Shown here piece by piece: positions 12,571 through 17,150 of a stretch of 64,000 nucleotides of DNA. The stretch's first letter is position 1; each line of letters begins with the position of its first letter. This stretch comes from Thermococcus stetteri (lineage in GTDB: Archaea > Methanobacteriota_B > Thermococci > Thermococcales > Thermococcaceae), in assembly GCF_017873335.1 (NCBI RefSeq), contig NZ_JAGGKB010000001.1:310001-374000 (forward strand), given 5' to 3'. A program made the position numbers and the translations under genes. A model generated the notes under the pieces. The model saw only the letters and a list, made by a program, of their open reading frames with translations, did not search any database and was not told the DNA's origin.

Positions 12571-14556
12571 ATGAACGAAAAAGAGGGAAAGCTGTCAAAG
12601 TTCATCGATCATCTCACAGAACTCGTCGAGATGGAGCGGAAAGCCGAGATAGAGGCTATGCGCCTAGAGATGCGGAGACTCACTGGAAGGGAGCGAGAGA
12701 AGGTTGGGAGAGCGGTTCTCGGCCTCAACGGAAAGGTCGTTGGGGAGGAGCTGGGCTACTTTCTGGTGAAATACGGCCGAGACCGGGAGATAAAAACGGA
12801 GATAAGCGTTGGCGATCTCGTTGTGATTAGCAAGCGTGACCCATTGAAGAGCGATTTGGTCGGGACTGTGGTCGAGAAGGGAAAGCGCTTCCTAACGGTC
12901 GCCCTTGAAACCGTTCCCGAGTGGGCGTTGAAGGGAGTCCGCATCGACCTCTACGCCAACGACATAACCTTCAAGCGCTGGCTTGAGAACCTTGAGGCCC
13001 TTCGCGAGAGCGGGAGGAAAGCGCTGGAGCTTTACCTCGGTCTGAGGGAGCCCGAGGAGAGCGGGGAAGTCGAGTTCACGCCCTTTGACAGAAGCCTGAA
13101 CGCGAGCCAGAGGAAAGCTGTGGCGAGGGCTTTAGGCAGTCCCGACTTCTTCCTGATTCACGGCCCGTTCGGAACCGGCAAGACGAGGACTCTCGCCGAG
13201 CTGATACGGCAGGAGGTGGCGAGGGGCCATAAGGTTCTCGCAACCGCCGAGAGCAACGTTGCCGTGGACAACCTAGTGGAGAGGCTGGTCCATTCGGGCA
13301 TTAAGGTGGTTCGCGTCGGTCACCCGAGCAGGGTCTCAAAGAGCCTCCACGAGACTACTCTGGCTTACCTCATGACCCAGCACGACCTCTACGCCGAGCT
13401 TAGGGAACTTAGGGTCATCGGTGAGAACCTCAAGGAGAAGAGGGACACCTTCACAAAGCCGGCTCCAAAATACAGGAGGGGTCTGAGCGACAGGGAGATT
13501 CTGAGGCTCGCTGACAAGGGCATCGGGACAAGAGGAGTTCCTGCAAGGCTCATCAGAGAGATGGCAGAGTGGATTAGGATAAACCAGAAGGTTCAGAAGA
13601 CCTTCGACGATGCGAGGAAGCTTGAAGAGAGAATAGCGAGGGAGATAATCAGGGAAGCCGACGTGGTTCTGACGACAAACGCATCAGCTGGCCTAGAAGT
13701 TGTTGACTACGGCTCCTACGACGTGGCCATAATAGACGAGGCGACGCAGGCAACCATTCCAAGCGTGCTCATACCAATCAACAGGGCAAAAAGGTTCGTA
13801 TTGGCTGGAGACCACAAACAGCTCCCGCCGACGATACTGAGCGAGAAGGCGAAGGAGCTGTCGAAGACCCTCTTCGAGGGCCTCATCGAACGCTATCCGG
13901 AAAAGAGTGAAATGCTTACCGTCCAGTACAGGATGAACGAGAGGCTGATGGAGTTCCCGAGTAGGGAGTTCTACGACGGGAAGATAGAGGCCCACGAGAG
14001 CGTTAGGAACATAACGCTCGCAGACCTTGGAGTTGATGAGCCCGCTCTCGGCGACTTCTGGGACGATGCCCTTAGGCCCGAAAACGTGCTGGTCTTCATT
14101 GACACAGCCAAGCGGAAGGACCGCTTCGAGAGGCAACGCTATGGAAGTGAGAGCCGTGAGAACCCGCTCGAGGCGATGCTCGTGAAGAAGACCGTCGAGA
14201 GGCTTCTAGGACTCGGCGTTGGACCTGAGTGGATTGGGGTCATAACGCCCTACGACGACCAGCGCGACCTGATACGCTCGCTTTTGCCGGAGGAAGTTGA
14301 GGTGAAGACGGTCGACGGCTACCAGGGGCGCGAGAAGGAGGTAATCGTTCTCTCCTTCGTTCGCTCCAACAGGAAGGGTGAGCTGGGCTTCTTGAAGGAT
14401 TTGAGGCGCTTGAACGTCTCGCTGACAAGGGCGAAGAGGAAGCTGATTCTTATCGGCGACTCCTTGACTCTGAGCGCCCACCCCACCTATAAAAGGCTGA
14501 TAGAGTTCGTAAAGGAGAGGGAAACGGTGGTTGATGCCAACGAGCTGGGGGTGTGA
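12571..14556 (+). CDS. SF1 DNA/RNA helicase, IGHMBP2/Dna2-like (TIGR00376)
   Basis: A 661-aa superfamily 1B helicase. The order of motifs is clear: an N-terminal SH3-like region, Q-motif [12 protein letters not shown], Walker [11 protein letters not shown], motif Ic ESNVAVDNL, Walker B IIDEATQA, motif [12 protein letters not shown], motif IV VQYRMNE, motif [12 protein letters not shown] and motif [12 protein letters not shown]. The family (IGHMBP2, Upf1-like) unwinds nucleic acid 5' to 3' with ATP; the archaeal role is not established, with replication or RNA surveillance as options. ATG 12571 is chosen because GGAAGGAAA precedes it and upstream sequence is T-rich non-coding DNA. It overlaps the taw3 start by 4 bases. 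Confidence 0.93.
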
Positions 14557-15146
14557 GGTGTGTTCCTCTACACCAAAACTTCAACGAGCAGAAGGAAAAG
14601 GCAATGGAAGGCCTGAGGAAAGCCTTGGCTGAGGACAAGGTAGATCACGACATAATCCCGCTCCTGGAGAAGATAAACGCCCTTCCAAACTACTCCACTA
14701 CTTCTTCCTGCTCCGGGAGGATCTCTGTCATGGAGATGCCGGACTTCGGGGACAAGGTGAACTCGGTCTGGCTCGGCAAGTGGCACAGGGAAGTTTCCGT
14801 CGAGGAAGTCCTTGAAGCCATTGGGAGGCACGAGAAGGGCCAGCTCTGGTTCCTCGTGAGGAGTCCGATTCTTCACGTTGCTGCCAGGACTATGGAGGAC
14901 GCTGTAAAGCTCCTCAACCTCGCGATCGGGCTAGGTTTCAAGTACTCTAACATCAAGAGCGTGAGCCACAGGAAGCTCCTCGTCGAGATTCGCTCGACGG
15001 AGAGAATGGACGTGCCTCTGGGGGAGAACGGCGAATTGTGGGTGAGCGAGGACTACATCGAGAGAATCGTTGGCTTGGCAAATGACCAGCTGAGGCGCTT
15101 CAAGGGGAAGCTGAAGAGGCTGGAGGGGAAATTGAAAGGCATCTGA
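14553..15146 (+). CDS. taw3: tRNA wybutosine-synthesis methyltransferase Taw3 (Tyw3)
   Basis: A 197-aa SAM-dependent N-methyltransferase that acts on 4-demethylwyosine-type intermediates at G37 of tRNA-Phe. The family hallmark TTSSCSGRI is present near residue 52, followed by EMPDFG and later SVSHRKLLVEIRSTERMDVPLG. Start choice is uncertain: GTG 14553 overlaps the helicase stop, while ATG 14604 would drop 17 residues. The longer form aligns better with Pyrococcus Taw3, whose first helix is equivalent to QKEKAMEGLRKAL. Other wybutosine genes are not in the window. Confidence 0.9.
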   Translation: MRCVPLHQNFNEQKEKAMEGLRKALAEDKVDHDIIPLLEKINALPNYSTTSSCSGRISVMEMPDFGDKVNSVWLGKWHREVSVEEVLEAIGRHEKGQLWFLVRSPILHVAARTMEDAVKLLNLAIGLGFKYSNIKSVSHRKLLVEIRSTERMDVPLGENGELWVSEDYIERIVGLANDQLRRFKGKLKRLEGKLKGI

Positions 15147-15153
15147 TCAGAGA

Positions 15154-15425
15154 CTATGGAAACACATTCAGATACATCCACCTCAACAGGAATAATAAAA
15201 ATGCCACTCCCAGAAACTGAACAAACTTCTTGCTGTCTCTTCCAATTTCATTGAGAGAATCCGCAAACAGATACATCACTAGCGTAACTGAAGCCAATGA
15301 CAGACCGAGTAGTAGGTACGAAGTAAAGAGATCCGGGGAGTCACCACCACCCGTAGCCAAAAAAACAAAAAGACAAATATTGGAAACGTCCGTAAAAGTT
15401 CCTCCCGAAGTATTCGCTCCATCAT
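15154..15425 (-). pseudogene. Small multi-span membrane protein, frameshifted in an A7 run; partner of the halocin-like peptide
   Basis: Not a family I recognise. The gene begins at ATG 15425 behind a strong GAGGTGAT and reads MMERILREELLRTFPIFVFLF, then shifts frame. The second frame runs to 15154 and carries two clear membrane helices (SYLLLGLSLASVTLVMYLFA and FVQFLGVAFLLFLLRWMYL). The frames join if the plus-strand A7 run at 15359-15365 is read as A8, giving a protein of about 90 aa with three membrane spans. It lies 30 bases downstream of the secreted Cys-rich peptide gene and on the same strand, so it may protect against or export that peptide. Immunity is a guess from position. Confidence 0.6.
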
Positions 15426-15455
15426 TATCACCTCAAAAAATTAAGAGTTTAGGAA

Positions 15456-15710
15456 CTAAAAACCCAACGCGCATTGAAGCATGCACATTCCAGCACTAAC
15501 ACCCAAGCATGCGGCACATGCCAGCACAGTGGCGACGTTGAGCTGGAGTTGTCCCTTCTCATCGTACCAAGCAACCACAGCCCTGTGGAAGGTTACGCTG
15601 GAGCTGTTAGCGGTCATCGCCATGGCCTGTGGAGCCGCAATCAACTGAAGACTCAACAGCATGGCAAAGAGGAAAACCCCAAAAGCAGTCTTCCTCCAGT
15701 TTATGGCCAC
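15456..15710 (-). CDS. Secreted small peptide with a halocin-C8-like cysteine pattern
   Basis: An 84-aa precursor. Residues 1 to about 31 form a signal peptide (basic NWRK, then a hydrophobic core ending PQAMA). The mature part of about 53 aa ends with the pattern Cys-x2-Cys-x7-Cys-x3-Cys in LACAACLGVSAGMCMLQC. From memory, the first four cysteines of the archaeocin halocin C8 have the same spacing (CSAC-x7-CTIGC). No other cysteines are present, so it would be a reduced version. GTG 15710 is chosen because the TATA box at about 15730-15738 would start the transcript right there, giving a near-leaderless mRNA; an upstream GTG at 15722 is possible. A small membrane protein follows in the same transcript. 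Confidence 0.6.
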   Translation of the reverse strand: MAINWRKTAFGVFLFAMLLSLQLIAAPQAMAMTANSSSVTFHRAVVAWYDEKGQLQLNVATVLACAACLGVSAGMCMLQCALGF

Positions 15711-15727
15711 CTTAAGTATCACAAGAA

Positions 15728-15744
15728 ACTATATAAACTTTTCC
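15728..15744 (-). promoter_or_regulatory. Promoter of the halocin-like cassette
   Basis: On the minus strand GGAAAAGTTTATATAG is a strong BRE/TATA combination centred near 15733. The predicted start is near 15708, at the first codon of the peptide gene. Confidence 0.65.
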
Positions 15745-15804
15745 TTTTACAAGTTGGATTTAATAACGTTTTTTTTTCCGCAGGAGTTTCAATTTCCAAC
15801 CGTA

Positions 15805-16050
15805 TCAAAACGACGAGGATGAAACGAAAGAAGCCAGAGTAAAAGAGCGAACAAAAGAACACAGTAGATCCGCCACAGGTATGTTGGAGAGTTTTATAGT
15901 TCCAACGGGCTCCCTCATCCTCACCTCCAGGTAGAATCCTATCCCAAAGATCTACATTCAGAATGAGATTGTTCCAAGGACTATTCCTGGAAGCCCGAAC
16001 CAAAGCGCATAACGAGGAGAGTAGTAATAAGAAGGACGTGGGGCCTAAAT
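15805..16050 (-). pseudogene. Remnant of a membrane protein gene
   Basis: No intact gene fills the 360 bases between the peptide gene and 16083. On the minus strand one frame reads YALWFGLPGIVLGTISF, then TGA, ATG, TAG, then IFGIGFYLEVRMREPVGTI and KLSNIPVADLL before drifting into low-quality sequence. Another frame just upstream reads LGPTSFLLLLSSL. Together they look like a small membrane protein broken by two stops and a shift. A GAGGTGAGGATG at 15928-15916 could still start a 37-aa peptide (MREPVGTIKL and onward, to 15805). Homology is not recognised; call based on residue pattern only. Confidence 0.35.
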
Positions 16051-16082: not shown

Positions 16083-17150
16083 TCAGACCTCCAGCGGGAG
16101 CTTCAAGTACTCAAGAACACTCCCGCGGCTCTTCTTTATCTCAACGTGCTCCACCAAGTCCTTGAACTGCCCACCAGCCAGACCGTCAGCTATTATTGCG
16201 CTTCCCTGGGCCGCTTCCTTCGCCTTGCCCTCAAGACCCCTCTGCTTGACGACGGGAAGTCCAAAGCGCTCCTCGAAGAGATCTTCCACGTCCTTTCTGA
16301 GCTCGTCTATGCGCATCAGCCTGCCGGAGAGGATTATCTCCTTAGCGTTGCCCACAACGGCCAGCTCGCTCGCAACGGCCTTTAAGAAGCCATCCTTCAT
16401 GGCCTCCCAAGCCTTTGCGAACGGTTCTTCGTCGAGCCTCTTGGCAAACTCCTCCGGCGGGAGTATCTCGTTGGCGGCTATTACCGTAGCTCCGCCCCAG
16501 AAGAGGTGCCACTTCTTGACCTGCCCCATGAGGTAGGCAACTTCGCCGTCGAGGGCACCGCTGTTCACGTAGGCCGGGCCGGGGAAAATGGTTCCGCCGA
16601 TGCCATCAACGATTTTCCCACCTTTAACTGCTCCGGCGTAGTTGTAGCCGAAACCTACCTCAAGAAGGACGAATGAAACTTCACCGTACTCGGTTCCAAA
16701 CCTTTTCGCTTGGTCGTAGATACCGAGCACTGTTATCGCCATCTTGTCGGCCGTTCCCATGTCAACCTTGTTGTACTTCCTCCACTCCGGCACCGTCTGG
16801 AGGTGGATAACGCCAGGGATGAACCAGACGTTCATGCCCTTCTCAGCCATCTCGCTTACCATCTTCTGTAATCCGATGAGGACAGGGATTTCCTTCATCT
16901 CCTCCTCTCTCACGAGCGTCATCTCGAAGCGGTCCCTGTCTGTCAGCTCGCTTATGTGCTTCAGCGGGACTCCGTAGCCGGAGGGCCCGATTATAAGATC
17001 GGCATTGAAGTCCTCAATGGCCTTGACAATCTTTTCAGGCGCCTCTGCGACCACTTCGCTCGGAAAGGTAAGGTCAAGCTTTATCCTCCCGTCTTCAAGT
17101 CCTATAACGTCGAAGCTCTTCGTTCCGGGATCGACGCCTATGACCCTCAT
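16083..17150 (-). CDS. DUF1464 family protein, actin-like ATPase fold
   Basis: A 355-aa protein of the archaeal DUF1464 family, predicted to have the ASKHA (acetate kinase/Hsp70/actin) fold. The N-terminal phosphate-1 segment is VIGVDPGTKSFDVIGLEDG, and later segments LLEVGFGYNYAGAVKGGKIVDGIGG and IILSGRLMRIDEL match the phosphate-2 and adenosine positions of that fold. Members have been called predicted butyrate kinases, but I know of no biochemical proof. ATG 17150 is used because GGGTG precedes it; an upstream in-frame start lacks a signal. The gene lies between the thermosome gene and the peptide cassette, all on the minus strand. Confidence 0.85.
   Translation of the reverse strand: MRVIGVDPGTKSFDVIGLEDGRIKLDLTFPSEVVAEAPEKIVKAIEDFNADLIIGPSGYGVPLKHISELTDRDRFEMTLVREEEMKEIPVLIGLQKMVSEMAEKGMNVWFIPGVIHLQTVPEWRKYNKVDMGTADKMAITVLGIYDQAKRFGTEYGEVSFVLLEVGFGYNYAGAVKGGKIVDGIGGTIFPGPAYVNSGALDGEVAYLMGQVKKWHLFWGGATVIAANEILPPEEFAKRLDEEPFAKAWEAMKDGFLKAVASELAVVGNAKEIILSGRLMRIDELRKDVEDLFEERFGLPVVKQRGLEGKAKEAAQGSAIIADGLAGGQFKDLVEHVEIKKSRGSVLEYLKLPLEV

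What the first reader, a model, noticed from the sequence alone, without database searches (positions are those of the whole stretch)
15154..15744. Possible Thermococcus archaeocin cassette: halocin-C8-like secreted peptide plus membrane protein
Seen: a short precursor with signal peptide whose mature end is built around Cys-x2-Cys-x7-Cys-x3-Cys, a strong promoter starting almost at its first codon, and a three-span membrane protein of about 90 aa behind a strong RBS 30 bases downstream. Known (from memory): the first four cysteines of the haloarchaeal antimicrobial peptide halocin C8 have this spacing, and small membrane proteins often give immunity. Inferred: a two-gene toxin/immunity or signalling cassette in a hyperthermophile. 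It stands in the only accessory-looking patch of the window.
Basis: partly seen in the sequence, partly recalled or inferred. Interest (0 to 1): 0.75.

Follow-up and report, generated by a model that had tools for sequence, protein, structure and literature searches.

The report
Dead relic of a Thermococcus archaeocin
The two small genes are the broken remains of a peptide-toxin and self-protection cassette; intact relatives in other Thermococcus-group archaea share one carrier protein, carry a dozen interchangeable cysteine-rich toxin ends, and each end type has its own matching membrane gene that probably protects the producer.

Summary
The 84-codon ORF and its CX2CX7CX3C tail are real. It is not a complete gene. 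It is the first 57 and last 25 codons of a ~310-aa secreted precursor, joined by a ~680-nt in-frame deletion. The ATG has become ATA and a conserved 19-bp leader is gone. The "three-span 90-aa membrane protein" is not one frame: it is the head of one small membrane gene and the tail of a second, joined by a deletion and out of frame. G048 has the intact version at the same site, between taw3 and DUF1464; at least nine genomes have an empty site there. The family occurs in about 25-40% of related genomes. It has a conserved ~240-aa N-domain and about 14 alternative hydrophobic Cys-rich C-domains, almost all with an even Cys count. Each C-type is followed by its own membrane-protein family. C-domains move between N-domains. 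Five C-types match, fully or marginally, the halocin-C8 model TIGR04449; the window's type A does not. Best reading: a decayed member of a modular archaeocin/immunity system. Halocin C8 was the right neighbourhood, but this copy is most likely dead. No activity is shown for any member, and I could not read the 2019 survey that may already list part of the family.

The parts
15154..15863 (-). Relic of a type-A archaeocin/immunity cassette (conserved upstream element, internally deleted precursor, fused membrane genes), inside a 942-bp taw3/DUF1464 gap
   Evidence: Same-site intact copy in G048; slot sizes; empty site in other genomes is about 19-39 bp
15730..15863 (-). Conserved upstream region including TATA box (15737-15730); begins sharply at TGTTCTTTTGTTC
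   Evidence: 76-99% identical upstream of nearly all family copies, unrelated sequence further upstream
15710..15711 (-). Junction of a 19-bp deletion that removed the conserved leader TGACCAACTGGTCAGGTG
   Evidence: Alignment to G048 and family
15456..15710 (-). Internally deleted precursor ORF (from GTG 15710; the ancestral ATG at 15704-15702 is now ATA); codons to 15459, stop 15458-15456
15534..15704 (-). N-terminal remnant: 57 codons of the conserved N-domain (signal peptide plus start of domain)
   Evidence: 93% aa identity to G048; 4 non-synonymous and 1 synonymous differences
15459..15533 (-). C-terminal remnant: last 25 codons of a type-A Cys-rich domain (Cys 5-8 of 8)
15345..15425 (-). 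Head of type-A membrane gene 1 (family c14), frame broken
   Evidence: 85-90% identity over residues 1-21 of the G048/G038 genes; frame
15154..15333 (-). Tail of type-A membrane gene 2 (family c10), lacking its start
   Evidence: 68% identity over residues 27-88 of G048 gene; 13 synonymous, 23 non-synonymous differences
14553..15146 (+). taw3 (TYW3-like tRNA methyltransferase), conserved flank of the slot
   Evidence: Pfam TYW3 3.4e-52; NCBIfam Taw3 4.2e-82
16083..17147 (-). DUF1464 gene, conserved flank of the slot (convergent with taw3)
   Evidence: PF07318 8.7e-128

Best explanation
The feature is a decayed copy of a Thermococcaceae archaeocin cassette. In intact copies (arrangement shown; activity inferred), one promoter drives a Sec-type secreted precursor: signal peptide, a conserved ~240-aa carrier domain, and a short hydrophobic Cys-rich C-domain. 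After export the C-domain would be disulfide-bonded and cut free, as in halocin C8, and would act on the membrane of related cells. The one or two membrane proteins encoded directly downstream are specific to the C-type and would protect the producer. C-domain and immunity genes act as an exchangeable payload on a common carrier, in the manner of polymorphic toxins. In the window the payload is type A. The precursor lost its start codon, leader, carrier domain and half of its cysteines, and its two immunity genes are fused and frame-broken, so the locus is most likely non-functional. Steps shown: family, architecture, C-type/membrane-gene linkage, domain swapping, site occupancy, lesions. Steps inferred: secretion, cleavage, killing, immunity.
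For: Intact same-site copy in G048 with both membrane genes. Family in 40 of 94 order genomes with a single-sequence query at a permissive E<=1, and in 29 of 115 phylum genomes with the profile at E<=1e-3, in 3 genera of one family. N-domain 45-98% identical while C-domains fall into about 14 types. C-domain Cys counts are 6-20 and even in 31 of 31 open copies listed; one MAG fragment (L084) has 7. TIGR04449 matches types C1, C3, C4 above cut-off, C2 and C5 at or below it. C-type to membrane-gene linkage without exception where several members exist: A to c14+c10, B/B' to c1, C1 to c108, D to c23, E to c63, G to c30, H to c126. C-domains 99% identical on N-domains 53% identical (L051/L055b), and 89% across genera on N-domains 69% identical. 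Displaced type-A tail plus type-A membrane genes behind an F-type toxin in G060. About 13 loci have a damaged toxin with an intact cognate membrane gene; none has the reverse (my count). Window lesions.
Against: No killing or immunity assay is known to me for any member. Type A, the window's type, has no detectable similarity to the halocin-C8 domain, so its toxicity rests on the shared carrier and on gene order. The window ORF is still open and in frame, has a usable GTG near the predicted transcription start, and keeps four Cys, so some product could be made. AlphaFold gave no usable model (mean pLDDT 42).
Confidence: 0.8

Rival explanations
1. The shortened gene is not dead: in-frame deletion made a minimal secreted four-Cys peptide that still works as a toxin, signal or decoy.
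For: Three internal deletions seen in the family (window; G038 41-codon copy; E-type L067 with 8 of 20 Cys) are all in frame and keep an even number of Cys; the window and G038 deletions end within a few codons of each other. A promoter is present and a leaderless GTG start is possible.
Against: ATG changed to ATA, conserved leader lost, both cognate membrane genes broken, 4 of 5 N-terminal differences non-synonymous. The G038 version has lost the signal-peptide end, and its retained immunity genes fit a simpler reason for in-frame deletion.
Confidence: 0.07
2. The system is not antagonistic: the proteins are variable surface/adhesion or kin-recognition proteins, and the downstream membrane proteins are partners rather than immunity.
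For: Thermococcales have another hypervariable surface module, VARTIG, for which adhesion/self-recognition is one of the hypotheses (PMC8416519). The N-domain is Asn/Thr-rich, as in glycosylated surface proteins.
Against: C-domains are short, hydrophobic and Cys-dense, and five types match a halocin-C8 domain model fully or marginally; toxin genes are often broken while cognate membrane genes stay intact; a displaced toxin-tail/immunity module occurs.
Confidence: 0.1
3. Sequencing or assembly artefact: the real locus is intact.
For: The 1-nt frame break lies in a T7 run.
Against: The 19-nt, ~680-nt and ~185-nt deletions are not homopolymer errors; a similar internal deletion at the same site occurs in G038; the own genome's other two copies are broken as well.
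Confidence: 0.03

Closest known systems
Halocin C8 (ProC8/HalC8; NCBIfam TIGR04449 halocin_C8_dom)
   Same: Exported precursor of similar size (283 aa, 76-aa C-terminal mature peptide per PMC11509114), C-terminal hydrophobic Cys-rich domain. C-types C1, C3, C4 of the Thermococcus family pass the TIGR04449 cut-off, C2 and C5 are marginal.
   Different: The window's type A does not match. In halocin C8 one gene gives both toxin and immunity (HalI; reference title); here one N-domain serves many C-types and specificity tracks separate downstream membrane genes. Halocin C8 uses Tat; here the N-terminus looks like a Sec signal without twin Arg.
Polymorphic toxin systems (CDI, Rhs and related)
   Same: Constant carrier, exchangeable C-terminal toxin, cognate immunity gene directly downstream, displaced orphan tail/immunity modules.
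   Different: C-domains are short Cys-rich membrane-type peptides rather than enzymes; no RHS, filamentous or T6SS parts seen. Membership of any named system is not claimed.
VARTIG hypervariable module of Thermococcales (PMC8416519)
   Same: Thermococcales, secreted protein with a recombining C-terminus in hypervariable loci.
   Different: VARTIG proteins are large Ig-domain proteins (arCOG07710). The present family has no recognised Ig domain in Pfam and a different gene content.

Membership tests
Thermococcaceae carrier/C-domain archaeocin family (defined here) | Conserved N-domain with signal peptide | tested here: not met
   Only 57 of ~240 residues remain in the window; clear homology, so a relic of the family rather than an intact member
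Thermococcaceae carrier/C-domain archaeocin family (defined here) | Complete Cys-rich C-domain of a recognised type with even Cys number | tested here: not met
   Last 25 residues of type A only, 4 of 8 Cys
Thermococcaceae carrier/C-domain archaeocin family (defined here) | Cognate membrane gene(s) directly downstream | tested here: not met
   c14 head and c10 tail present in the right place but fused and frame-broken
Halocin C8-like (TIGR04449) | Match to curated model above 24 bits | tested here: not met
   No hit for window ORF or intact type A; met by relatives of types C1, C3, C4
Halocin C8-like (TIGR04449) | CX2CX7CX3C as the first four Cys of the domain (spacing from memory) | tested here: not met
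   In type A the motif is Cys 5-8 of 8
Halocin C8-like (TIGR04449) | Antimicrobial activity of the mature peptide | not testable with these tools
   needs culture work
Polymorphic toxin system | Constant N-domain with exchangeable C-domain and type-specific immunity gene | tested here: met
   Arrangement met by the intact relatives, not by the window copy itself; that the downstream gene gives immunity is inferred

The most novel reading that the evidence does not exclude
Repeated in-frame deletions keep a signal or membrane anchor plus a four-Cys CX2CX7CX3C tail, so the window and G038 carry selected, shortened archaeocins (miniature toxin, signal or decoy) evolved from a modular, polymorphic-toxin-like family of hyperthermophiles.
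Probability: 0.07. Interest if true: 0.75.

Novelty: new variant of a known kind. Interest (0 to 1): 0.5.

Why it matters
The window copy is a fossil, but it leads to a family-wide system in hyperthermophilic archaea that combines halocin-C8-type peptides with polymorphic-toxin logic: one carrier, about a dozen toxin ends, dedicated membrane proteins for each end. Thermococcales include genetically tractable laboratory species, so this makes archaea-against-archaea killing and immunity directly testable at high temperature. It also offers a catalogue of disulfide-rich peptides expected to be heat-stable. I could not check how much of it the 2019 survey of archaeal toxins (Makarova et al., mBio, not held here) already lists.

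Tried and rejected
Direct profile hits for the 84-aa ORF: only sub-threshold TauE, MgtC and holin matches in Pfam and none in NCBIfam, rejected as hydrophobicity. Programmed -1 frameshift at the T7 run to restore the membrane ORF: rejected because G048 shows two separate genes there with a deletion between them in the window. RNA element: only an irrelevant sub-threshold Rfam hit. Virus or plasmid carriage: no relative in IMG/VR or PLSDB. Structure: low-confidence model, so no fold search was made. PDB profile search: nothing significant. The palindrome TGACCANNTGGTCA is not clearly enriched genome-wide. Makarova et al. 2019 could not be read by DOI, PubMed id or PMC id.

Full report
What is in the window. 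On the minus strand at 15456-15722 there is an open frame of up to 88 codons whose end reads CAACLGVSAGMCMLQCALGF, so the CX2CX7CX3C motif is real. A TATA box lies at 15737-15730. Downstream, the ATG that follows the strong ribosome-binding site (15425) opens a frame of only 48 codons. The hydrophobic 68-codon frame 15154-15360 is in a different frame and has no start signal.

What it is. Searching the order showed that residues 1-63 match the start of proteins with open frames of mostly 270-380 residues, and that the last ~25 residues match the end of some of them. G048 carries the intact version at the same site, next to taw3: a 309-aa precursor (from its ATG) followed by two small membrane genes. 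Against it the window's toxin gene has three main lesions: a 19-bp deletion that removes the conserved leader and brings the promoter to the first codon; ATG changed to ATA at the start; and an in-frame deletion of about 680 nt joining codon 57 to the last 25 codons, with half of the cysteines lost. Of the five single-base differences in the N-part (the ATG change among them), four are non-synonymous. The two membrane genes are joined by a deletion with a frame break.

The site. taw3 and DUF1464 converge. In at least nine genomes their ends are 19-39 bp apart, which is the empty site. In the window the gap is 942 bp. G048 holds a type-B and a type-A cassette, G038 a type-B cassette and a type-A relic with a different internal deletion, G026 a promoter-less type B, G041 a type C2. 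A few genomes have unrelated sequence in the slot. Several other neighbourhoods recur around the cassettes of other genomes, but I did not map them in detail.

The family. Counts depend on the query: 40 of 94 order genomes match the 84-aa sequence at a permissive E<=1, and 29 of 115 phylum genomes match the family profile at E<=1e-3, all in one family and three genera; no hits in viral or plasmid collections. The N-domain (~240 aa, no significant Pfam, NCBIfam or PDB relative) is 45-98% identical between copies. The C-domain falls into about 14 types of 63-120 aa with 6-20 Cys. The number is even in all 31 open copies tabulated; one MAG fragment has seven. Types C1, C3 and C4 match TIGR04449 above cut-off, C2 and C5 marginally. 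Type A, the window's type, does not, and a direct profile comparison with the C types finds nothing. C-domains move: L051 and L055b share a 99% identical C-domain on N-domains 53% identical; L071 from another genus shares an 89% identical type-B domain with L058 on N-domains 69% identical.

Immunity logic. Directly behind each C-domain stands a membrane-protein gene whose family depends on the C-type without exception where a type has several members (spans by simple hydropathy; no Pfam hits). In G060 an F-type toxin and its gene stand in front of an orphan type-A tail followed by the type-A membrane genes, like displaced modules of CDI or Rhs loci (the comparison is from general knowledge). 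By my count about 13 loci have a damaged toxin and an intact cognate membrane gene, two have both damaged (the window and G071), and none has an intact toxin with a damaged partner. Toxin genes are longer than most partners, which explains part of the asymmetry. The window's own genome has three copies, all with a broken toxin; the type-G and type-D partners are intact and the type-A partners are not. The strain therefore looks like a non-producer that kept two immunities. That is inference.

Mechanism. By analogy with halocin C8, whose 283-aa precursor is exported and matures into a 76-aa peptide and HalI (PMC11509114), the C-domain would be released outside the cell, held by disulfides and act on membranes. 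Here the common carrier cannot give type-specific immunity, so the downstream membrane gene is the better candidate. I tested none of these steps and found no laboratory test of them.

Verdict. The value lies in the family to which it leads. I cannot say how much of that family the 2019 survey of archaeal toxins already covers, because that paper is not in the library.

Noticed in passing
L038, L039, L040 (G018, G072, G070): A second, unrelated N-domain scaffold (~264 aa frames with a CPCC motif) also carries TIGR04449 C-domains in Thermococcus, so the halocin-C8-like domain sits on at least two carriers.
   Followed up: partly
L041 4870-6400; L086 3361-4202: The window's own genome holds two more copies: a type-G precursor frameshifted just before the C-domain with an intact partner gene, and a type-D precursor that lost its N-terminus with an intact partner gene.
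   Followed up: yes
upstream of NWRK-class copies; lost in window at 15710/15711: A palindrome TGACCANNTGGTCA (often with a mismatch) followed by GGTGGTGGCC stands directly before the start codon in most copies with the MNWRK N-terminus; possible operator or leader hairpin.
   Followed up: partly
window 15730-15863 and homologous regions: About 130 bp upstream of the gene are conserved across almost all family copies and start sharply at TGTTCTTTTGTTC, whatever lies further upstream.
   Followed up: partly
L053, L046: Copies in G072 and G060 have an in-frame TAG at the same position after AAP (codon 26, signal-peptide end) where other copies have Gln.
   Followed up: no
window, L058 7629-7751, L067: All three internal deletions found in precursor genes are in frame, and two have 3' ends within a few codons of each other. 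Unexplained; may protect translation of the downstream partner.
   Followed up: partly
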